From Cylindrospermum sp. NIES-4074 (GTDB lineage: Bacteria; Cyanobacteriota; Cyanobacteriia; Cyanobacteriales; Nostocaceae), in contig AP018269.1 in the NCBI GenBank assembly GCA_003994795.1, positions 620,001 through 684,000 on the forward strand: a DNA stretch of 64,000 nt, written 5' to 3'. The notes beneath the pieces are model-generated. The model saw only the letters and a list, made by a program, of their open reading frames with translations, did not search any database and was not told where the DNA came from. This document shows, piece after piece, positions 11,016 through 19,963 of this stretch. Each line of letters begins with the position of its first letter. The first letter of the stretch is position 1. A program made the position numbers and the translations under genes.

Positions 11016-11221
11016 AGGTGAAGTAACTTAAAGAAAACTTAATTCAGTACAACCAATACCACAAAGTATTCCAAAGGAGACTTTAGTCAAAATGTTGTGG
11101 TACTGTCTTTTTCGAGTAAAGCGTCCAAGTTCAAGATGCAACAAATCATGCGCGGCAAGCAAGCTGTGACACTTGATTTATTGCCAAAGCCACTCCTTTC
11201 AAAGTTTGTGGGTTGAGCCTT

Positions 11222-12235
11222 ATGTCTGACCTTCCTTTCACTTTAGATCAGTTACGTATCCTGAAAGCGATCGCCGTAGAAGGGAGCTTTAAGCGTGCTG
11301 CTGATAGTCTTTATGTCTCCCAACCTGCCGTGAGTTTACAAGTCCAAAATCTAGAACGGCAGCTGGATGTCCCCTTATTTGACCGTGGAGGACGTCGCGC
11401 CCAATTAACCGAAGCAGGGCATCTACTCTTAAGCTACGGTGAAAAAATACTCAGTCTGTGCCAGGAAACTTGCCGCGCTATCGAGGATTTACAAAACCTC
11501 CAAGGCGGTACTTTGATTGTTGGTGCTTCTCAAACTACTGGGACTTATCTTTTGCCCAGAATGATTGGCATGTTCCGGCAAAAATATCCAGACGTGGCGG
11601 TGCAATTGCACGTCCACTCTACCCGACGGACTGCTTGGAGTGTAGCTAACGGACAAGTGGATTTGGCCATTATTGGTGGTGAAATTCCTGGTGAATTGGC
11701 AGAGTCTTTGGAAATTCTGCCCTATGCGGAGGATGAGTTGGCGCTGATTCTACCCGTATTCCATCCCTTTGCTAAACTCGAAACCATCCAAAAAGAAGAC
11801 CTATATAAATTACAATTCATTTCTCTAGATTCTCAATCTACTATCCGCAAAGTAATTGACCAGGTGCTAGCACGCTGTGAGATTGATACCAGGCGTTTTA
11901 AAATTGAAATGGAGCTAAATTCCATAGAAGCAATTAAAAATGCCGTGCAATCAGGTTTGGGTGCCGCTTTTGTCTCGACAAGTGCGATCGCCAAAGAATT
12001 ACAAATGGGCGTCCTCCATTGTGCCGCTATTGAAGGCGTTGTTGTCAAACGAACATTGTGGCTGATTTTTAATCCCAATCGCTACAGATCCAAGGCGGCA
12101 GAAGCCTTTAGTCAGGAAATTCTGCCCCAGTTTGCTACCCCTGAATGGAATCAAAATGTGTTAAAATTGTCACAAAAAGACTTAGTGGTGAATACATTGG
12201 ATGCAGCAACGCCCAGATCATCTGACGCAGGATAG
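11222..12235 (+). CDS. pacR: LysR-type regulator, RbcR/PacR (Ycf30) type
   Basis: A 337-residue LysR regulator. The winged HTH occupies residues about 2-60 ([20 protein letters not shown], then [20 protein letters not shown]), followed by a co-inducer domain ([20 protein letters not shown] onward). The near-standard chloroplast Ycf30/RbcR N-terminus points to the carbon-assimilation regulator called PacR in Nostoc PCC 7120, which controls carbon metabolism and photosynthesis genes. The frame extends to a TTG at 11213, but the ATG at 11222 (MSDLPFTLD) fits the family. It is convergent toward devH, with an accessory block between them. Confidence 0.88.
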
Positions 12236-12285
12236 CATCTTGTCACTAGTCATTAGTCAAAAACTCGTGACTAATGACCTTCACG

Positions 12286-12478
12286 GGTGATGCTTCCGGT
12301 ACGCCTGACGGCGAACAACAGTCGCTCATAGGGAGCCACTGGGTTAGGTCGCCAGACTTATACCCCTAAGGGGAAGCAAGCTACGCGCAGCGTTACCACA
12401 GTCTTTGCAAGTGGCGTGGAAACCCCCTGTTGTGCGCGCTGGCTCACCAATGACTAATGACTAATGACTAAAAACGAA
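12286..12478. repeat. Repeat-rich spacer before the kinase gene
   Basis: This spacer carries fragments typical of dispersed Nostoc repeats: GGGAAGCAAGCTACGCGCAG, GGGAGCCACTGGGTTAGGTC and a terminal GACTAATGACTAATGACTAA tandem run next to a matching ACTAGTCATTAGTC stretch at 12243-12256. The TAGTCATTAGTC/GACTAATGACTA pairing makes a long-range inverted repeat flanking the spacer (about 12244-12472). No coding potential is seen. Confidence 0.6.
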
Positions 12479-12479
12479 A

Positions 12480-13862
12480 ATGGAAGTTTACTGCACTCGT
12501 CCCAGCTGCCGCCGCCCACAAAACTTTTTTCCAGATTTAGATGATCTGACAACGCTGAAAACTACACAGCAAAAATATTGCACCACCTGCGGTATGCCAC
12601 TGATGTTAGATGGTCGCTATGTGCCTATTAAACTCCTGGGAAGAGGGGGATTTGGTGCAGCTTTTTTGGCAGGCGATCGCCGAATTCCCGGTATGCGTCC
12701 ATGTGTGGTTAAGCAGTTTCAACCGGCGGGAAACTTAAACTCAAATCAACTGCAAGTGGCGCAACAATTGTTTGAGAGAGAAGCAGATGTTTTAGCCCAG
12801 ATAGGCCAAGCAAATGAGCAAATTCCTGAATTGTTTGCTTTCTTTCCAGTGATAGTTCAAAGTTTGCAACCAGGACAGCAAGACCAGTTTTTTTACTTAG
12901 TACAAGAATATATTGATGGGCTAAATCTAGAGGAAGAATCGGTTCAAAATGGTAATTTCTCTGAAGAACAAGTGTTAGAAGTACTCAGAGAAATTCTCAA
13001 AGTCCTCAAGTTTGTCCATGACAGAGGCATTATCCACAGAGATATTAAACCCTCTAACATCATGCGAAATCGGGATGGGAAACTATTCCTACTAGATTTT
13101 GGAGCAGTTAAACAGGTAACAAATGCCCCAGCAGGTTCTGCGGGTTCTTCCACAGGAATTTATTCTCTGGGGTTTGCACCACCTGAGCAGATGACAGGGG
13201 GTCAAGTATTCCCATCCACAGATTTATACTCTTTGGCGGTAACAGTTTTGGTATTGCTCACTGGTAAGGACACAACTCAGCTATTTGATGCCTATAGTAA
13301 CCAGTGGAAATGGCGCTCACAAGCGAATGTCAACCCCCGTTTGGCTGAGATTTTAGATAAAATGCTCCTGCCTGCTGCTAATCAACGCTTTCAATCAGCA
13401 CCAGAAGTTCTGGAAGCCCTGACCCAGCTTTTAGCGCCGCCAACAGTCTTACCACAATCACAACTACAGCCACAGCCACAACCGCCACCAAAACCACAAC
13501 CTCGACCACAACCACAATTTTCTACATGGGAATTGTTAGGTGGTGCGGCATTTAGTGGATTTGAGGGTGCCTTAATAGCGATCGCTCTTTTAGGTCTAGT
13601 AAAAAACCCTATAGTTACTCTGGGTATTTCAGCAGTGATTTTGGGGATACTGATTTTTGCCCAAACTAGGCGCTGGCTTGAAAAATTTGATTTATTAATT
13701 ATACCAAGTATCAGCTTTGCACTGGTATTCTTTATTCCCTTATTGCAGGGCGGCCTTGGTATTCAAGAAGTGGTAATTCTAGCACTTGCTGCTAGTTTAA
13801 TAGCCATTGCCCTAACAGCACTATTTCGTCTTATTTATAAATTGTTATCTCTTCTGCTTTAA
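12480..13862 (+). CDS. Zinc-ribbon Ser/Thr protein kinase with C-terminal membrane domain
   Basis: A 460-residue Hanks-type kinase. A four-Cys N-terminal ribbon (C5, C10, C34, C37) precedes the kinase fold: glycine loop GRGGFG (54-59), catalytic K78 in VVKQF, HRDIKPSN with D188, and DFG D206. After a Pro/Gln-rich linker (about 320-347) come three or four hydrophobic segments to the C-terminus, so the kinase should face the cytosol from the membrane. It is followed at once by three tethered binding proteins and a decayed one in the same direction, which suggests they supply or sense its signal. No sensory domain is otherwise present in the kinase. Confidence 0.92.
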   Translation: MEVYCTRPSCRRPQNFFPDLDDLTTLKTTQQKYCTTCGMPLMLDGRYVPIKLLGRGGFGAAFLAGDRRIPGMRPCVVKQFQPAGNLNSNQLQVAQQLFEREADVLAQIGQANEQIPELFAFFPVIVQSLQPGQQDQFFYLVQEYIDGLNLEEESVQNGNFSEEQVLEVLREILKVLKFVHDRGIIHRDIKPSNIMRNRDGKLFLLDFGAVKQVTNAPAGSAGSSTGIYSLGFAPPEQMTGGQVFPSTDLYSLAVTVLVLLTGKDTTQLFDAYSNQWKWRSQANVNPRLAEILDKMLLPAANQRFQSAPEVLEALTQLLAPPTVLPQSQLQPQPQPPPKPQPRPQPQFSTWELLGGAAFSGFEGALIAIALLGLVKNPIVTLGISAVILGILIFAQTRRWLEKFDLLIIPSISFALVFFIPLLQGGLGIQEVVILALAASLIAIALTALFRLIYKLLSLLL

Positions 13863-13981
13863 CAGCGTCATGTTCAGAATATTTAGTGCCTGGGGAAAAT
13901 GCGAGTAAATTTTTAAACTTATACTTTTTAAGTATAATATTTTTATCCACTCTCCAATCCCTTCTAACCTTCCCAAAATAT

Positions 13982-15043
13982 ATGTCTGAGAAAAAGGAAA
14001 CGCTTAACCTTTTCTTAGCTATGCTCATAAGCATTGGCTTAATTTTTGCCGGCTTATGGTTTCTGATGGAACGCTGGGCGCAATTAACTAGAAATCCAGT
14101 TAATACCTCTTCCTCCCTTAACTCCTCAGACAGTGGAAACCAAATTAATTCTTTAAACCCACCAGCGAATAAATGTAATGTGGCAAACCTGCCATCTGGG
14201 ACATTTAACTATGGTGGTAGCACAACATGGGCACCTATCCGTCGAGATGTAGATCAATTACTTACAAGCATCTGCCCTCAATTTAATTTACGCTACATTC
14301 AACCTTTTAATAAAAAGCCAGGATCTGCTACAGGCATTGAAATGTTGATCGATAATCAACTAGCTTTTTCTCATTCTTCCCGCTCAATTAAGGGAGAAGA
14401 AAACCAAAAAGCTCAACAAAAAGGGTTTAGTTTAAAAGAAATTTCAGTAGCGATAGATGGAATTGCGATCGCCGTCAACCCCGACCTAAATATTCCTGGT
14501 TTAACCGTCGCTCAACTCAAAGATATTTACACTGGCAAGATTACCAACTGGCAACAGCTAAGTGGGCCAAATTTACCCATTACACCCTTGTCTCGCAGCA
14601 AAGAAGCTGGAGGTACAGTGGAATTTTTTATCGACAACGTTCTTAATAAAGAAAATTTTAGTACCAACGTTAGTTATATTGGCACTACTACGGAAGCATT
14701 ACGAAAACTAGCTTCGATTCCTGGCGGAATTTACTATGCTTCTGCCCCAGAGGTTGTACCCCAATGTACTATTAAGTCGCTGCCACTGGGGTACACAAGT
14801 GACCAATTAGTCAATCCCTACCAAGCACCTTTGGTATCTTTATCTGAATGTCCCGCTAAACGTAATCAGTTAAATGTTCGAGATTTTCGCAGCGGGAAAT
14901 ACCCTATTACTCGTAATTTATTTGTAATTATCAAACAAAATGGTCAAACAGACCAGCAAGCAGGGGAAGCTTATGCAAATTGGTTATTGACACCTCCAGG
15001 TCAAGAATTGATCGAAAAGGCTGGATTTGTCAGAATTAAGTGA
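13982..15043 (+). CDS. Membrane-tethered PstS-like (phosphate-type) binding protein 1
   Basis: 353 residues from the ATG at 13982 (MSEKKETLNLFLAMLISIG). One N-terminal transmembrane segment (about 8-28) is followed by a periplasmic PBP-like domain: FNYGGSTTWAPIRRDVD, GIEMLIDNQLAFSHSSR, IAIAVNPDLNIPGLTVAQLK, DIYTGKITNWQQLSGP and a C-terminal GQELIEKAGFV. The GSTT loop and the DIYTGKITNW block are PstS family features that would bind an oxyanion. There is no lipobox and the first segment is followed by WFLMERW, so it likely stays anchored. No PstCAB genes adjoin. The frame runs back to 13886, but the paralogues fix the start here. Confidence 0.85.
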   Translation: MSEKKETLNLFLAMLISIGLIFAGLWFLMERWAQLTRNPVNTSSSLNSSDSGNQINSLNPPANKCNVANLPSGTFNYGGSTTWAPIRRDVDQLLTSICPQFNLRYIQPFNKKPGSATGIEMLIDNQLAFSHSSRSIKGEENQKAQQKGFSLKEISVAIDGIAIAVNPDLNIPGLTVAQLKDIYTGKITNWQQLSGPNLPITPLSRSKEAGGTVEFFIDNVLNKENFSTNVSYIGTTTEALRKLASIPGGIYYASAPEVVPQCTIKSLPLGYTSDQLVNPYQAPLVSLSECPAKRNQLNVRDFRSGKYPITRNLFVIIKQNGQTDQQAGEAYANWLLTPPGQELIEKAGFVRIK

Positions 15044-15105
15044 TGAAGATTTGTAACTAATGCTGGTGTTTAGATTTGGCAAAATCTCCTTATTAAAATT
15101 TTCTT

Positions 15106-16548
15106 ATGTCACAAAAAAATGAAACAGTGGTTTTAGCCTTAGCCTTGCTGCTGACAGCTGGGATAGCAGGTATTGGTATGTGGTGGTTTGCTAATAGTTC
15201 TGGGGCTAAATTTGGTAATACCATCACTGAAAATCAGAAAAATGGCAGCAATCTATCAACGGCAGAACGCATTAGTTTCGGGGAAAAAATTTTTACTCCG
15301 GGTGATGTGACTCCAGCCAAAAAAGAGGCTGTGCAATCTATAGGTGATAAAAATTATGAAAACGCGATCGCCAAGTTGACAGCAGCTCTAAAACTCAAGC
15401 AAAACGATCCAGAAGCGCTGATATATCTTAATAATGCCCGCATTGGCTCTAGTAAAAGTTATACCATTTTTGCATCTGTACCAATGGGCACTGACCCCAA
15501 TACTGCCTTAGAAATTTTACGTGGCATTGCTCAAGCCCAAAATGAAATTAACGCTTCTGGAGGAATTCAGGCAGTACCCTTGAAGGTTGGTATAGCTAAC
15601 GATGACGACAACCCAGAAATATCTCAGCAAATCGCTACAACCTTAGTCAAAAATCCTCAAGTATTGGGTGTAGTCGGCCCTTATAGCAGCGATACTACCT
15701 TAGCCGCAGGCGCTATCTATACTTCAGGACAACTAGTAGCTATTTCTCCTACCAGTACATCAGTAAAAATTTCCAACTTTAGCCGCTATGTTTTTCGGAC
15801 GATTCCCAGTGATTTCATGGCTGCTAGAAGTTTAGCTAACTACATGGTAAAAACCTTGCAGAAAAAAAATGCAGTGGTTTTCTTCAATTCCCAAAGTAAC
15901 TATAGCCAGTCCCTCAAATCCGAGTTTGTTTCATCTGTTTCCCTGGAAGGTGGACAAGTACCCAGTGAATTTGATTTGTCTAAAGCAGATTTTAGTGCAG
16001 CTAAAAGCATAGAACAAGCTACTAAACAAGGATCTGAAGTGTTGATGTTAGCTGCTGATAATGAAACTCTAGACAAAGCGCTGCAAGTAGTTCAGGTAAA
16101 CCAGAAACGGTTAACTCTGTTGGGGGGAGATGTTGCTTACACCGTCAAAACTTTAGAAGTTGGTAAGGAACAAGCTACGGGGATGCTAGTGGCAGTTCCT
16201 TGGCATATTGATAGCGATCCTAAATCAGATTTTCCTCAGAAGTCCCGGCAGTTGTGGGGTGGTGATGTGAGTTGGCGTACTGCTCTGGCCTATGACGCCA
16301 CAAATGCCTTTATTGCCGCCTTAAAGGGCAATCCCACCCGTTCTGGAGTACAACAAGCACTTTCCTCTCCTAGCTTTTCTACCATCGGCGCGTCTGGCAC
16401 GATTCGGTTTTTACCATCAGGCGATCGCAATGCCCCAGTCCAACTTGTAAAAATCGTTTCCGGTAATCGCTCTCGTACTGGGTACGACTTTGAGCCAATA
16501 TCACAAATTGATTTAGTCAACCAAAAGCAAATCTTAGTTAAACCTTAA
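15106..16548 (+). CDS. Membrane-tethered LivJ-type (Peripla_BP_6) binding protein
   Basis: 480 residues. The N-terminus (MSQKNETVVLALALLLTAGI) is the same anchor as in the two PstS-like neighbours, but the outer part is a different fold: a short TPR-like stretch (about 85-115, NYENAIAKLTAALKLKQNDPEA) and then a branched-chain amino-acid-type receptor domain (FASVPMGTDPNTALEILRGI, GVVGPYSSDTTLAAG, YDATNAFIAAL). The ligand is unknown; in this superfamily amino acids, urea or short amides are common. It sits 62 bases after binding protein 1. No permease or ATPase genes are nearby. Confidence 0.88.
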   Translation: MSQKNETVVLALALLLTAGIAGIGMWWFANSSGAKFGNTITENQKNGSNLSTAERISFGEKIFTPGDVTPAKKEAVQSIGDKNYENAIAKLTAALKLKQNDPEALIYLNNARIGSSKSYTIFASVPMGTDPNTALEILRGIAQAQNEINASGGIQAVPLKVGIANDDDNPEISQQIATTLVKNPQVLGVVGPYSSDTTLAAGAIYTSGQLVAISPTSTSVKISNFSRYVFRTIPSDFMAARSLANYMVKTLQKKNAVVFFNSQSNYSQSLKSEFVSSVSLEGGQVPSEFDLSKADFSAAKSIEQATKQGSEVLMLAADNETLDKALQVVQVNQKRLTLLGGDVAYTVKTLEVGKEQATGMLVAVPWHIDSDPKSDFPQKSRQLWGGDVSWRTALAYDATNAFIAALKGNPTRSGVQQALSSPSFSTIGASGTIRFLPSGDRNAPVQLVKIVSGNRSRTGYDFEPISQIDLVNQKQILVKP

Positions 16549-16653
16549 CCTGAAGCCATCCTCAAGATGCTATTGAATAACCATCTAGCTCGGTTAAACA
16601 CGAGGTAAAAGGGTGGGGCTTTACACGCCAAAAATATTTAGGGTGATTAATAG

Positions 16654-16867
16654 GCGATCGCAGTTAACCTCGCCTAACTCTAAGATATCTACACTGGCAA
16701 GGTTACTAACTGGCTATAGGTTGGTGGTTAAAACTAAGAACTTATTTGTATTTTTTAAACATAATGGACAACCCGACCAGGAAGCAGAATAAACTCACGC
16801 TAACTTACTGCTGAGGGATCAAGTTCAGAAAATAATTTTTCAAGCTACTTTTGTCAAGATTCCCTAA
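16654..16867 (+). pseudogene. Decayed PstS-like binding protein gene
   Basis: Reading one plus-strand frame gives AIAVNL, two stop codons, then DIYTGKVTNW, matching the AIAVNPDLN and DIYTGKITNW blocks of the neighbouring genes. After a large internal deletion, another frame reads KNLFVFFKHNGQPDQEAE, a stop, then THANLLLRDQ and FVKIP-stop, matching RNLFVIIKQNGQTDQQAGE and the C-terminal ANWLLTPPGQE and FVRIK. It is therefore the remnant of a third phosphate-type paralogue in the same array, missing its N-terminus and middle. Confidence 0.85.
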
Positions 16868-16942
16868 CAAAACACCTACTCTTAGACTCAACTCTCAACT
16901 AGTAAACACTTGTATTCAAAGAATCAGGGGGAATAATTTGCT

Positions 16943-17989
16943 ATGTCCCAAAAGAACGAAATACCTATTCTTGTCTTATCCCTTCTGATTACAATTGGGC
17001 TAATAGGTGGCGGTTTTTGGTGGTTTACCAGAAAGTCTGGTCTTAACCTGAATCAAATTAGTTCTGTGAAGACCAACACATCCCAGAGAATATCGGCACA
17101 ATCTAGCGGCAAGAATTTTGCCTCTGTGCAAAATGTTCCCACAGGATTATTTAGCTACGGAGGTAGTACCTCTTGGGCACCAATCCGCTTACAAATTGAC
17201 TCAGAAATTCAAGCAGCGCGACCAGAGTTTCGGTTGCGTTATCTCCAAACCAGCGGAGAGACACCTGGTTCTGGTGCTGGTATAAAGTCTTTAATCGACG
17301 GACAATTAGCCTTTGCCCAGTCCTCGCGACCAGTTTCAGATCAAGAATTAAGCCGTGCCCAACAGCGTGGGTTTAGCCTCAACCAAATTCCCATAGCAAT
17401 TGATGCTTTGGCAGTAGCAGTTAACCCCAACCTCAAAATCCCAGGATTGACGGTAGACCAAATTAAGTCTATTTACACTGGCAAGATCAACAATTGGAGC
17501 CAGGTGGGCGGCCCCAATCTCCCGATCAAGCCTTATTCCCGCCGCATCATTGATGGCGGCACAGTGGAACTTGTTGTCCAAGACATCTTGGGTGGTCAGC
17601 CTTTCGGTTCCCAAGTGGAGTTTGTCTCCACAACCACCCAAGCCTTGCAAAAATTGGCTGGTAGTCCTGGTGGCATCTATTACGCTTCTGCCCCAGAGGT
17701 TGTTCCTCAATGTTCAGTCAGAGCCTTGCCGTTGGGGCGAACTCAAGGGCAATATGTTGCTCCCTACCAAGAACCATTTGTCCTCCCGTCTAAATGTCCT
17801 GATAAACGGAACAAATTGAACATTGAGGCTTTTCAATCAGGAAAGTACCCAATTACCCGTAACCTGTTTGTGGTGGTCAAACAGAATGGTCAAACCGAAC
17901 AGCAAGCAGGTGTTGCTTACTCCAACTTACTGCTGACTGAGCAGGGACAAGAACTGATTAACCAGACTGGGTTTGTCAAAATCCGCTGA
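16943..17989 (+). CDS. Membrane-tethered PstS-like binding protein 2
   Basis: 348 residues, paralogue of the gene at 13982 over the whole length. Anchor MSQKNEIPILVLSLLITIGL with GGGFWWF, then the PBP domain: FSYGGSTSWAPIRLQID, GIKSLIDGQLAFAQSSR, ALAVAVNPNLKIPGL, SIYTGKINNWSQVGGPNLP, and GGIYYASAPEVVPQC shared exactly with its partner. The ligand-loop GSTS replaces GSTT. It closes the kinase/binding-protein block and is followed by the oppositely oriented devH. Expression is probably shared with the kinase gene, although spacers of several hundred bases leave room for separate promoters. Confidence 0.85.
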   Translation: MSQKNEIPILVLSLLITIGLIGGGFWWFTRKSGLNLNQISSVKTNTSQRISAQSSGKNFASVQNVPTGLFSYGGSTSWAPIRLQIDSEIQAARPEFRLRYLQTSGETPGSGAGIKSLIDGQLAFAQSSRPVSDQELSRAQQRGFSLNQIPIAIDALAVAVNPNLKIPGLTVDQIKSIYTGKINNWSQVGGPNLPIKPYSRRIIDGGTVELVVQDILGGQPFGSQVEFVSTTTQALQKLAGSPGGIYYASAPEVVPQCSVRALPLGRTQGQYVAPYQEPFVLPSKCPDKRNKLNIEAFQSGKYPITRNLFVVVKQNGQTEQQAGVAYSNLLLTEQGQELINQTGFVKIR

Positions 17990-18075: not shown

Positions 18076-18846
18076 TTAGCTGGCTCGATTAATCGACTCT
18101 GCTGGCAAGCAAATAAGATTATCCCCTTGGGTGAGAATCAAGCCGCGTTGACGCAACTTGCCCATCAAGCGGGTGACGGTGACACGAGTCGAACCAATCG
18201 CGCTACCAATTTGGGCATGGGTGAGGGGGAAGGGCAGACAATAGCCACGAATTACATCAGGATCGGTTTCGCTCATTGCCGGCTCTCCATATTCCTCAAT
18301 CAGCAGTGTGAGAAATCCTAAGAGTCGGTCAATTGTGCGCCGTTGTCCCAAGGCACTCAGCCACAGCAGCTTGCGCTGGTGCTGATATCTAAAGGCGTCC
18401 ATAACTTCGCGGCGGAAGTGAGGCCAGTTGTCTAGGTCGTGCCAGTACATCCACAGCACTGCTGTTTGATCAACGTGGGCGTAAGCCTGGAGTGTGAATG
18501 GTGACTGGGCAACAATTTCAAATGGCTGTCCCGCGCCTACAAAACCTAAGAAAGCTTCTTCAGGGGTTCTGTTGATGCGACGAGACGTTAGCTGACTGGC
18601 AGTAGCACTTACTTGGGCGGTTCCTACCATACGGATCGCACCCCTTTGCACCAAATATAGCAATCCAGGTCTAGCTGGAATGCGCTCATCTTTGCTGAAG
18701 GTGCGGCAGCGGTAGTGTTCTTGGGCCCAATCAAGAATTCGTTGCCAAGTTAAGAAAGGGCGTGATGCCTCAGAGAAGGAGGATGGAGATTGCATAGGTA
18801 ACAAAGAGCGTTCGGCTGAAGACAAAGACGTCATAAAAAGGTGCAA
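18076..18846 (-). CDS. devH: Crp/Fnr-family regulator, DevH-like
   Basis: A 256-residue regulator: an N-terminal beta-roll sensor domain (about 60-175, LLYLVQRGAIRMVG to the QHQRKLLWL linker) and a C-terminal winged HTH (LPFPLTHAQIGSAIGSTRVT, VTRLMGKLRQRG). The signature arginine/serine for cAMP binding is not evident. Nostoc PCC 7120 DevH, needed for heterocyst glycolipid-layer formation, is a Crp-family protein whose locus number (alr3952) is next to that of pacR (all3953), as I recall; the convergent arrangement here agrees. The assignment rests on that synteny and family, so the exact name is moderate confidence. Confidence 0.75.
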   Translation of the reverse strand: MHLFMTSLSSAERSLLPMQSPSSFSEASRPFLTWQRILDWAQEHYRCRTFSKDERIPARPGLLYLVQRGAIRMVGTAQVSATASQLTSRRINRTPEEAFLGFVGAGQPFEIVAQSPFTLQAYAHVDQTAVLWMYWHDLDNWPHFRREVMDAFRYQHQRKLLWLSALGQRRTIDRLLGFLTLLIEEYGEPAMSETDPDVIRGYCLPFPLTHAQIGSAIGSTRVTVTRLMGKLRQRGLILTQGDNLICLPAESINRAS

Positions 18847-18952: not shown

Positions 18953-19963
18953 ATGAGGGTAGTAAAGTTTACTCACTATTCATCGATTATTCATCAAATT
19001 TTATCCTACTCTCATTTTTCTTTATCTAGATTAAACTTCTATCCGTGGACAGATGAAACCGGATCAAATGATCTGGGGTACAGATTTTTTACCAAGGAAC
19101 ACGTGCATCAGAGGCTACTAGTTAACCAATATACAGCAATCAAGCAGTTAATATACAATCAATTAGTGCTTGCCCTAAATATTTATACCAGTAACGGGGT
19201 TATTTTATGCATGGGAGATAGAAAAATTCCTCTACATAAAGTTAGAGATGATGGACGAATTTTATATATTTCGGGTGTAGCGTTGCAGCTATCAAAATCT
19301 CAGAATTCAACAGCTATGGAGATAGCTGGTGAGATTACCGCTCACTTATTAGCAACCTGTAGCCACGTTTTTAGCGTCCAAATAGTTCCCCCTGGTTGGA
19401 TTCATTTAGAATTAACTCACTCTACTTTAGCGGCTTGGCTGCAAAGTTTAACAGCAAGTAGTGCAAAGGGAAATCAAATAATCCATAAACCACATACCAC
19501 AAATCACAATTTTTCCAGTTTGTTTGCTATTCAATATGCCCATGCACGCTGTTGCTCATTAATACAACTAGCTCACCGAGAGGGATTGATTAAACTTAGC
19601 CAAGCCAATACCGGTCTAGATGTTTGGAGCGTCGTCTCCCTACAGCCTATACCTTGGCTCAACTGTGAGCAAAAACTTCGCCTCAATCACCCAGATGAGA
19701 TGTGTCTAATTGGTGAGTTAGTACAAGTGGTAGACGACTGGGAAATTATGGATTTTGGTAGCTCGGTTAACTGGAAAAAAATAGCCATGAATTTGAGCCA
19801 AGCTTTTGAAAATTTCTGGTGTAAATGCCGTATTTGGGGTGAAGTGAAAATTACTTCACCAGAGCTAGCCCAAGCCAGAGTTGGATTGCTTATGGCTACT
19901 CAGTTTGTACTCAGAGCTTTGCTAGAAGAAAAACTGGGGGTTGTTGCCCTATGGGAACTGTAA
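18953..19963 (+). CDS. ArgRS-derived protein: Add-1-like and DALR domains, no catalytic core
   Basis: A 336-residue protein built from the two ends of arginyl-tRNA synthetase. Residues about 60-165 resemble the ArgRS N-terminal additional domain (GVALQLSKSQNSTAMEIAGE matches the VALQLAKKLGKNPREIAEE type, then VQIVPPGWIHLEL matches VAGPGFINFFL). Residues about 190-336 are a DALR anticodon-binding helix bundle (FAIQYAHARCCSLIQLAHRE). The whole class I catalytic core with HIGH and KMSKS is absent. It may bind tRNA-Arg or act as a regulator. The first 50 residues look poorly conserved; a GTG at 19103 preceded by AAGGA is a plausible true start. Divergent from devH. Confidence 0.8.
   Translation: MRVVKFTHYSSIIHQILSYSHFSLSRLNFYPWTDETGSNDLGYRFFTKEHVHQRLLVNQYTAIKQLIYNQLVLALNIYTSNGVILCMGDRKIPLHKVRDDGRILYISGVALQLSKSQNSTAMEIAGEITAHLLATCSHVFSVQIVPPGWIHLELTHSTLAAWLQSLTASSAKGNQIIHKPHTTNHNFSSLFAIQYAHARCCSLIQLAHREGLIKLSQANTGLDVWSVVSLQPIPWLNCEQKLRLNHPDEMCLIGELVQVVDDWEIMDFGSSVNWKKIAMNLSQAFENFWCKCRIWGEVKITSPELAQARVGLLMATQFVLRALLEEKLGVVALWEL

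What the first reader, a model, noticed from the sequence alone, without database searches (positions are those of the whole stretch)
12480..17989. Zinc-ribbon Ser/Thr kinase with an array of binding proteins that share one membrane anchor but differ in fold
Seen: a membrane Ser/Thr kinase is followed by PstS-like, LivJ-like and PstS-like genes, plus a decayed PstS-like copy. All three intact binding proteins begin MS(E/Q)K(K/N)E followed by a hydrophobic helix and a GLWF, GMWWF or GFWWF end, although one outer domain is a type I periplasmic fold and the others are type II. Known: ABC binding proteins normally have their own signal peptides or lipoboxes and sit beside permease/ATPase genes; none occur here. 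Inference: the common anchor was attached to unrelated ligand receptors, and the array may present several ligands to the kinase as a sensing system rather than import them. If pacR and devH are adjacent in PCC 7120 (consecutive locus numbers, from memory), the block is an insertion.
Basis: partly seen in the sequence, partly recalled or inferred. Interest (0 to 1): 0.85.

Follow-up and report, generated by a model that had tools for sequence, protein, structure and literature searches.

The report
Plug-in nutrient receptors for a kinase
In this cyanobacterium a membrane enzyme that switches other proteins on or off sits beside a row of outward-facing small-molecule binding proteins that share one membrane anchor, and comparison with many related genomes suggests these are interchangeable receptors telling the enzyme what is outside the cell rather than parts of a nutrient pump.

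Summary
In detail: a 4-Cys (zinc-ribbon-like) Ser/Thr kinase is followed by PstS-like, LivJ-like, decayed PstS-like and PstS-like genes. The two folds share one membrane anchor (MSQKNET...GGGxWWF; about 51% identity across folds, 15-17% after shuffling). The sensing idea is well supported and extended. The kinase ends in a membrane domain without a Pfam family. In 118 family genomes this domain occurs 36 times away from the pacR locus: 32 lie beside an anchored binding protein, 3 are cut by contig ends, 1 is alone. The anchor follows the kinase, not the sensor fold (0.51-0.53 against 0.25 identity). Outside the family, 41 of 42 genomes with anchored binding proteins carry the kinase (47 of 49 with looser cut-offs; phylogeny not controlled). 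The sensor modules also occur fused to kinase, CHAT and caspase domains. No permease match was found in 80 named loci. The insertion idea is not supported: the pacR-kinase-receptor order reaches other orders, so empty sites look like losses. Ligands, complex and output are undetermined. It is a new variant of binding-protein-controlled kinases (GlnH-GlnX-PknG).

The parts
12480..13862 (+). 4-Cys-prefix Hanks-type Ser/Thr kinase (460 aa): N-terminal Cys motif, intact kinase motifs (GRGGFG, VVK, HRDIKPSN, DFG), proline-rich linker
   Evidence: catalytic residues invariant in an alignment of 33 kinases including this one
13500..13859 (+). C-terminal hydrophobic (4-5 helices by hydropathy) 'receiver' domain of the kinase, no Pfam family; the proposed docking site for anchored receptors
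   Evidence: hydropathy; shared with other kinases paired with anchored binding proteins; no Pfam match for this stretch, only stray weak ones among 21 members
13976..15043 (+). PstS-like (type II) receptor, single N-terminal anchor MSEKKETLNLFLAMLISIGLIFAGLWF, no lipobox seen
15106..16548 (+). LivJ-like (type I) receptor, anchor MSQKNETVVLALALLLTAGIAGIGMWWF, short TPR-like spacer, then Peripla_BP_6 domain
16640..16868 (+). decayed PstS-like copy (remnant of a fourth receptor)
   Evidence: repeat D1; stops in all three forward frames
16943..17989 (+). PstS-like receptor, anchor MSQKNEIPILVLSLLITIGLIGGGFWWF
11213..12235 (+). LysR-type regulator (PacR/RbcR-like), neighbour of the kinase in 103 of 103 family genomes that have the kinase
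18076..18846 (-). Crp/Fnr-type regulator (DevH-like), far-side neighbour, convergent; within 9 kb in 84 of 103

Best explanation
This is a split, multi-input receptor kinase. The kinase has a cytoplasmic catalytic domain and a C-terminal membrane domain but no outside sensor of its own. Each binding protein has its short N-terminus inside, one uncleaved membrane helix, and a ligand-binding domain in the periplasm. The shared anchor helix fits the kinase's membrane domain. Ligand closure of any one receptor is relayed through its anchor to the membrane domain and changes kinase activity. Because the anchor is the adaptor, receptors of different fold and ligand can be added, lost or encoded elsewhere in the genome without changing the kinase. 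Shown by sequence comparison: genes, folds, shared anchor, linkage, co-occurrence, the match between anchor type and kinase type, and natural fusions. Inferred: topology, physical docking, ligand-driven signalling, ligands, and the phosphorylated target (possibly within the carbon/nitrogen control that PacR belongs to).
For: (1) Linkage: 90 of 103 kinase orthologues in 118 family genomes have at least one listed LIV/PST gene on the same strand within 8 kb; 56 of 60 kinase loci in 80 named records, a sample that overlaps the first. (2) Co-occurrence outside the family: 41 of 42 genomes with an anchored LIV or PST have the kinase, expected 7.7; with looser cut-offs 47 of 49, expected 9.0; among 40 kinase loci read, 17 have a receptor adjacent and 16 (looser: 19) have one elsewhere in the genome. 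(3) The kinase membrane domain, used as a profile, hit 36 places away from pacR; 32 are next to an anchored receptor, 3 are cut by contig ends, 1 is alone; two of the weakest hits, without the Cys motif (L288, L289), also had an anchored PstS-like neighbour. (4) The anchor tracks the kinase, not the fold: 0.534 identity across folds at one kinase type against 0.247 within one fold across kinase types; 0.505 against 0.245 without the motif filter, shuffled 0.17. (5) Fusions: 4-Cys kinase + TM + LivJ-like (L015; L120 by Pfam, L121-L123 by similarity), other kinase + LivJ-like (L114), pseudokinase-like + PstS-like (L008). (6) 150 distinct ORFs with the membrane domain and 292 with a receptor domain: none with both. 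(7) No match to five permease queries in 80 named loci.
Against: 13 of 103 family kinases have no listed receptor within 8 kb; in G010, G015, G100 and G030 the 0.4-0.9 kb left between kinase and devH cannot hold an intact one. In a few genomes the receptors stay by devH while the kinase stays by pacR, or the two are otherwise separated (e.g. G004, G057, G021, G089). Of 40 kinase loci read outside the family, 7 have no anchored receptor in my lists (4 with looser cut-offs). Two genomes with anchored receptors lack a kinase hit (G222, G178). Orphan anchored LIV genes exist: of 20 stand-alone LIV loci read, 9 have no kinase next to them. One anchored PstS-like gene (L077) lies divergent from a pst-like operon. 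Receptor genes with a broken or unlisted kinase exist in family genomes G113, G073, G051. The co-occurrence test does not correct for phylogeny, its cut-offs were set after seeing the lists, and the phylum searches scored only up to 4-6 candidates per genome. No structure or complex was predicted (the job never finished). No ligand, phosphorylation or interaction data exist here.
Confidence: 0.72

Rival explanations
1. The proteins are orphan substrate-binding proteins that deliver phosphate and amino acids to ABC permeases encoded elsewhere; the membrane helix merely replaces a lipid anchor and the kinase is a neighbour that controls uptake.
For: Both folds are transport-type folds; most of the PstS anion pocket (T10, S38, R135, G140, T141 of E. 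coli numbering) and of the LivJ amino-acid pocket is kept; one anchored PstS-like gene is divergent from a pst-like operon (L077).
Against: None of 80 named loci matched five permease queries; separate PstS- and LivJ-like genes with permease-looking neighbours (judged by eye) exist in the same genome; the same modules are fused to kinase, CHAT and caspase domains; anchor sequence follows the kinase type.
Confidence: 0.12
2. The kinase and the anchored proteins are separate units kept together only by inheritance of the locus (a stable neighbourhood beside pacR), without a common mechanism.
For: PacR is the more constant neighbour (103 of 103); several genomes have the kinase without receptors, or separate the two (G004, G057, G021, G089).
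Against: Pairing recurs at other loci, without PacR, with different kinases, and persists as co-occurrence when unlinked; natural fusions.
Confidence: 0.1
3. The anchored proteins are substrates, not inputs: the kinase phosphorylates their short cytoplasmic tails (conserved S2/T7) to control them.
For: The tail MSQKNET is conserved and contains Ser and Thr.
Against: Fused versions place the kinase N-terminal to the helix with no such tail; kinases of the second type pair with tails such as MTNKKEN, in which S2 and T7 are not kept.
Confidence: 0.04

Closest known systems
GlnH-GlnX-PknG of mycobacteria and corynebacteria (PMC6069109, abstract and passages; PMC9769921 seen in a listing)
   Same: A solute-binding protein encoded in the kinase operon controls a Ser/Thr kinase; PknG also carries a rubredoxin domain in mycobacteria. 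The authors suggest that SBP control of such kinases may be widespread and mention kinase-SBP single polypeptides.
   Different: There the SBP is a putative lipoprotein, a separate membrane protein (GlnX) is thought to link it to a kinase without membrane helices, and there is one SBP. Here the membrane part belongs to the kinase, the SBPs carry their own anchor helix, and one kinase has up to three intact SBPs of two folds.
Single-chain cyanobacterial kinase + ANF-receptor proteins (alr0344 of PCC 7120 in PMC2176072; kinase + ANF receptor of Nostoc PCC 7120 in PMC1262709; passages)
   Same: Kinase coupled to a LivJ/ANF-type receptor domain; own-genome example L015.
   Different: One chain; in L015 and L120-L123 no C-terminal receiver domain. 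No array or interchangeable anchors in the passages read.
Cyanobacterial metacaspase with ANF-receptor (PMC2853523), orthocaspase with PBP-like_2 (PMC8283722) (passages)
   Same: The same receptor folds coupled to another cytoplasmic effector.
   Different: Single chains, listed as domain architectures; no split form with a kinase in the passages read.
SpkB of Synechocystis (PMC10651672, two passages)
   Different: No receptor partner in the passages read; orthology not tested.

Membership tests
ABC importer substrate-binding proteins (PstS, LivJ) | type II (PstS) or type I (LivJ) binding-protein fold | tested here: met
   PBP_like_2 and Peripla_BP_6 above cut-off; solved relatives by sequence
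ABC importer substrate-binding proteins (PstS, LivJ) | cleavable signal peptide or lipobox | tested here: not met
   conserved uncleaved-looking N-terminal helix shared across folds, no lipobox seen; judged by sequence, no signal-peptide program was run
ABC importer substrate-binding proteins (PstS, LivJ) | encoded with permease and ATPase | tested here: not met
   no match to five permease queries (taken by eye from this genome) in 80 named loci; 9 ORFs with ABC-ATPase-like motifs somewhere in those stretches, not classified; one divergent case L077
ABC importer substrate-binding proteins (PstS, LivJ) | ligand pocket residues | tested here: inconclusive
   PstS-like: S139 replaced by Gly in 60 of 63, T141 kept in 62, R135 in 58, position 56 is Ser in 63. 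LivJ-like: positions aligned with S79, T102, D121, Y150 kept and E226 replaced by Asp in 19 of 19 aligned sequences. Residue roles recalled, not from a call
4-Cys-prefix Hanks-type kinases | NCBIfam NF045510 prefix plus Pkinase domain with catalytic residues | tested here: met
   43.2 bits (cut-off 24) and 111 bits (cut-off 31.7); catalytic residues invariant in 33 aligned kinases
4-Cys-prefix Hanks-type kinases | zinc binding or redox response of the Cys motif | not testable with these tools
   needs protein
GlnH-GlnX-PknG system | SBP gene co-conserved with a Ser/Thr kinase gene | tested here: met
GlnH-GlnX-PknG system | separate GlnX-type membrane adaptor; kinase without membrane helices but with a TPR domain | tested here: not met
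   no further ORF of 80 aa or more between kinase and devH on the + strand except an 89-aa frame inside the last PstS-like gene; the kinase has its own hydrophobic domain and no TPR match
GlnH-GlnX-PknG system | SBP ligand stimulates kinase output | not testable with these tools
   bench assay needed

The most novel reading that the evidence does not exclude
Cyanobacteria use a plug-and-socket receptor code: a previously unnamed membrane domain of Hanks kinases (the socket) accepts any binding protein that carries the matching anchor helix (the plug), encoded next door or elsewhere in the genome, so that one kinase reads a changeable set of outside ligands; the same receptor heads are hard-wired by fusion to CHAT and caspase effectors, giving death-receptor-like proteins.
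Probability: 0.45. Interest if true: 0.88.

Novelty: new variant of a known kind. Interest (0 to 1): 0.78.

Why it matters
The stimuli of bacterial Ser/Thr kinases are called an outstanding question in the abstract of PMC6069109 (start seen). Here the candidate receptors are encoded beside the kinase, conserved across many cyanobacteria, soluble outside the membrane and testable one by one for ligands. The anchor/membrane-domain match also gives a concrete, swappable interface, and it predicts which unlinked binding proteins in a genome report to which kinase.

Tried and rejected
Insertion hypothesis: rejected, because the order pacR-kinase-receptors occurs in other families and orders (15 of 40 loci outside the family have both PacR upstream and a receptor downstream), and genomes with pacR and devH starts 1.0-2.5 kb apart (G016, G039, G099, G064, G035, G104; named: Nostoc parmelioides L160, Nostoc sp. 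RI_552 L161, Anabaena sp. 4-3 L189) fit loss; L149 and L151 keep only a PstS-like fragment, and G014 and G063 show block genes with stops.

Ongoing gene conversion of anchors within a locus: not supported (same-locus 0.528 against other-locus 0.512).

Reading the 705-718 aa PstS-like frames as kinase fusions: rejected, L064 is a CHAT fusion by Pfam and L065-L067 look alike. Reading all long LIV frames as kinase fusions: rejected; several are caspase, CHAT or NTPase-like fusions.

Loss of the LivJ amino-binding acid: I first read it as lost; one search shows an invariant Asp there, so this was dropped.

Ligand assignment from pocket residues: inconclusive. Structure prediction: kinase job accepted but unfinished at every poll; LivJ-like job never accepted. 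So no fold search was run.

Literature: ten searches ran; two others failed for syntax and were reworded. In the listings I saw no paper describing a split cyanobacterial kinase with anchored binding proteins; most hits were seen as title and abstract start only, and subscription papers are not in that library.
Full report
WHAT IS THERE. The window lies in a 7.7-Mb genome held as five contigs. Between a LysR-type regulator (11213-12235, +) and a Crp/Fnr-type regulator (18076-18846, -) are a kinase and three intact binding-protein genes, all on the + strand. The kinase has a four-Cys N-terminal prefix (NF045510, 43 bits, cut-off 24), a protein kinase domain (111 bits) and a hydrophobic C-terminus. 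The binding proteins match PBP_like_2, Peripla_BP_6 and PBP_like_2 above cut-off. A fourth copy has decayed. By a simple hydropathy scan each intact protein has one membrane helix, near its N-terminus. The LivJ-like protein has a short segment between the helix and the binding domain; in relatives Pfam TPR models match the equivalent stretch (L116, L118).

ONE ANCHOR, TWO FOLDS. In 80 named loci plus 40 loci from outside the family, 36 LivJ-like and 102 PstS-like anchors that passed a start-motif filter have the consensus MSQKNETTVLVLALLLTVGLVGGGVWWF and MSQKNETPILVLSLLITVGLIGGGFWWF. Cross-fold identity is 0.53 within a locus and 0.51 between loci, against 0.154 (sd 0.040) after shuffling. Without the filter, on the named loci alone (25 and 87 anchors), it is 0.505 against 0.169. 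The anchor is therefore most simply homologous between unrelated folds.

LINKAGE IN THE FAMILY. Of 118 family genomes, 103 have the kinase orthologue at E<=1e-100. All 103 have the LysR gene within 4 kb on the same strand (start to start), 84 have the Crp gene within 9 kb on the other strand, and 90 have at least one listed receptor within 8 kb on the same strand. The PstS list was cut by the tool at about E=1e-109 and I used only the higher LivJ rows, so 90 is a lower bound. Receptor sets vary: (LivJ, PstS) = (0,1) 25, (0,2) 20, (1,0) 17, (1,1) 15, (1,2) 13, (0,0) 13. Six genomes with pacR and devH starts 1.0-2.5 kb apart have neither the kinase nor listed receptors. Among 80 named loci (which overlap this sample), 64 include the LysR gene, 60 the kinase, and 56 of these 60 an intact receptor; none matched five permease queries that I picked by eye from this genome. 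Nine ORFs with ABC-ATPase-like motifs lie somewhere in these stretches; I did not classify them.

BEYOND THE FAMILY. In a 339-genome sample of the phylum the kinase orthologue (E<=1e-90) is in 83, of which 55 are among the 301 genomes outside the family (family membership counted by me from its rows). I read 40 of those 55 neighbourhoods: 17 have a receptor downstream, 24 the LysR gene upstream, 15 both. In 16 more an anchored receptor lies elsewhere in the genome, and in 7 none was listed; with looser cut-offs these become 19 and 4. Of 42 genomes outside the family with an anchored LivJ- or PstS-like protein, 41 have the kinase (expected 7.7, Fisher p=2.4e-37); all 29 LivJ-like genomes do. 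The cut-offs (LivJ-like rows from residue 5 or earlier with E<=1e-115; PstS-like rows from residue 15 or earlier, leaving out G178) were set after seeing the lists. With looser ones (residue 6 or earlier, E<=1e-60, and G178 included) it is 47 of 49, expected 9.0; the exceptions are G222 and G178. The p values ignore shared ancestry, and only up to 4-6 candidates per genome were scored.

A MEMBRANE DOMAIN THAT MARKS RECEPTOR-LINKED KINASES. The last ~115 residues of the kinase recur in a second kinase type that begins mostly MICCLNPDC or MICCLNPEC and sits next to anchored LivJ-like genes. No Pfam family covers them. As a profile they hit 140 places in 105 of 118 family genomes (my sum of its match column), once in this genome although it has 18 matches to the 4-Cys prefix. 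Of the 140, 104 are at the pacR locus and 36 elsewhere. Of the 36, 32 lie beside an anchored receptor (five from coordinates only, 27 read), three are cut by contig ends (G085, G105, G076) and one has none (G110). Two of the weakest hits, kinases without the Cys motif (L288, L289), proved to be next to anchored PstS-like genes, a successful prediction. No ORF in the fetched loci has both this domain and a receptor domain (150 and 292 distinct ORFs).

THE ANCHOR FOLLOWS THE KINASE. LivJ-like and PstS-like anchors of the pacR-type kinase share 0.534 identity (1,694 pairs). LivJ-like anchors of the pacR type and of the second kinase type share 0.247 (418 pairs), although their remaining sequence is 0.38 identical. 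Without the motif filter the values are 0.505 and 0.245, with shuffled anchors at 0.17. This is what a kinase-specific docking helix would give. Anchored PstS-like genes with pacR-type anchors also occur alone, with no kinase or permease match beside them, in six of seven such loci read, L296-L301 (L297 has a kinase about 5.7 kb away; L296 has a lipoprotein-like PstS gene next to it); the seventh, L077, is divergent from a pst-like operon. They may report to the pacR-locus kinase in trans (inference).

FUSIONS. The same modules follow a membrane helix in one-chain proteins: 4-Cys kinase + LivJ-like (own genome L015 and L120 by Pfam; L121-L123 by similarity, where my hydropathy cut-off missed the helix in L122 and L123), another kinase + LivJ-like (L114), a pseudokinase-like protein (kinase match below cut-off) + PstS-like (own genome L008), CHAT + PstS-like (L064 by Pfam; L065-L067 by similarity), CHAT + two LivJ-like (L110), caspase + LivJ-like (L105), AAA-type + LivJ-like (L109; in L118 below cut-off). 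A third split pair, a kinase with one helix and an anchored PstS-like protein, is in L078 and L079. Of 20 stand-alone LivJ-like loci that I selected, 10 have an adjacent kinase, one a kinase fragment and 9 none.

POCKETS. The PstS-like group keeps most anion-binding positions of E. coli PstS but has Gly for S139 in 60 of 63 sequences and Ser at position 56 in all 63. In 19 of 19 aligned LivJ-like sequences the positions aligned with LivJ S79, T102, D121 and Y150 are kept and E226 is Asp, which is compatible with an amino-acid ligand. The residue roles are from memory; no ligand is shown.

MECHANISM. Best supported: outside ligand, receptor closure, anchor helix, kinase membrane domain, kinase activity. 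All signalling steps and the physical contact are inferred. The Cys prefix may add a redox input, as reported for SpkB (PMC10651672, passage). [quoted passage not shown] whether it is a target is open.

COMPARISON. The nearest studied system is GlnH-GlnX-PknG (PMC6069109, passages), whose authors say SBP-controlled kinases may be widespread. Single-chain kinase-ANF proteins were listed in 2005 and 2007 (PMC1262709, PMC2176072; passages). I found no paper on the split array, its anchor or the membrane domain.

Noticed in passing
L064-L067 (e.g. L064:2934-5048, -): CHAT domain + one membrane helix + PstS-like domain, preceded by a DUF1822 gene and a small HTH-type gene (Pfam for L064; similar-looking genes in L065 and L067, and a DUF1822-like one in L066).
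   Followed up: partly
L105, L107, L108, L111, L113: Caspase (Peptidase_C14 by Pfam in L105, the rest by similar N-termini) + membrane helix + LivJ-like receptor: a death-receptor-like layout in cyanobacteria.
   Followed up: partly
L008 (own genome, C1:5457046-5460867), ORF 631-1146 -: The pseudokinase-like + PstS-like fusion lies near an ORF that looks like a phage-tail or contractile-injection tube protein (my reading, no search).
   Followed up: no
L014 (own genome, C3:239438-243457): WD40 repeats fused to a LivJ-like receptor in a 2397-aa open frame on a 261-kb contig.
   Followed up: no
L083:7192-8583 (own genome): A further anchored LivJ-like gene, broken by stops; intact relatives stand alone in L125-L128.
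   Followed up: partly
L283 and L285: Two kinases with the membrane domain flank a single anchored LivJ-like gene.
   Followed up: no
window 12245-12275 and 12443-12470: Short TGACTAA-type repeats between the LysR gene and the kinase.
   Followed up: no
window 18953-19963: A DALR-domain (ArgS-related) gene lies beyond the Crp-type gene in all 80 named loci.
   Followed up: no
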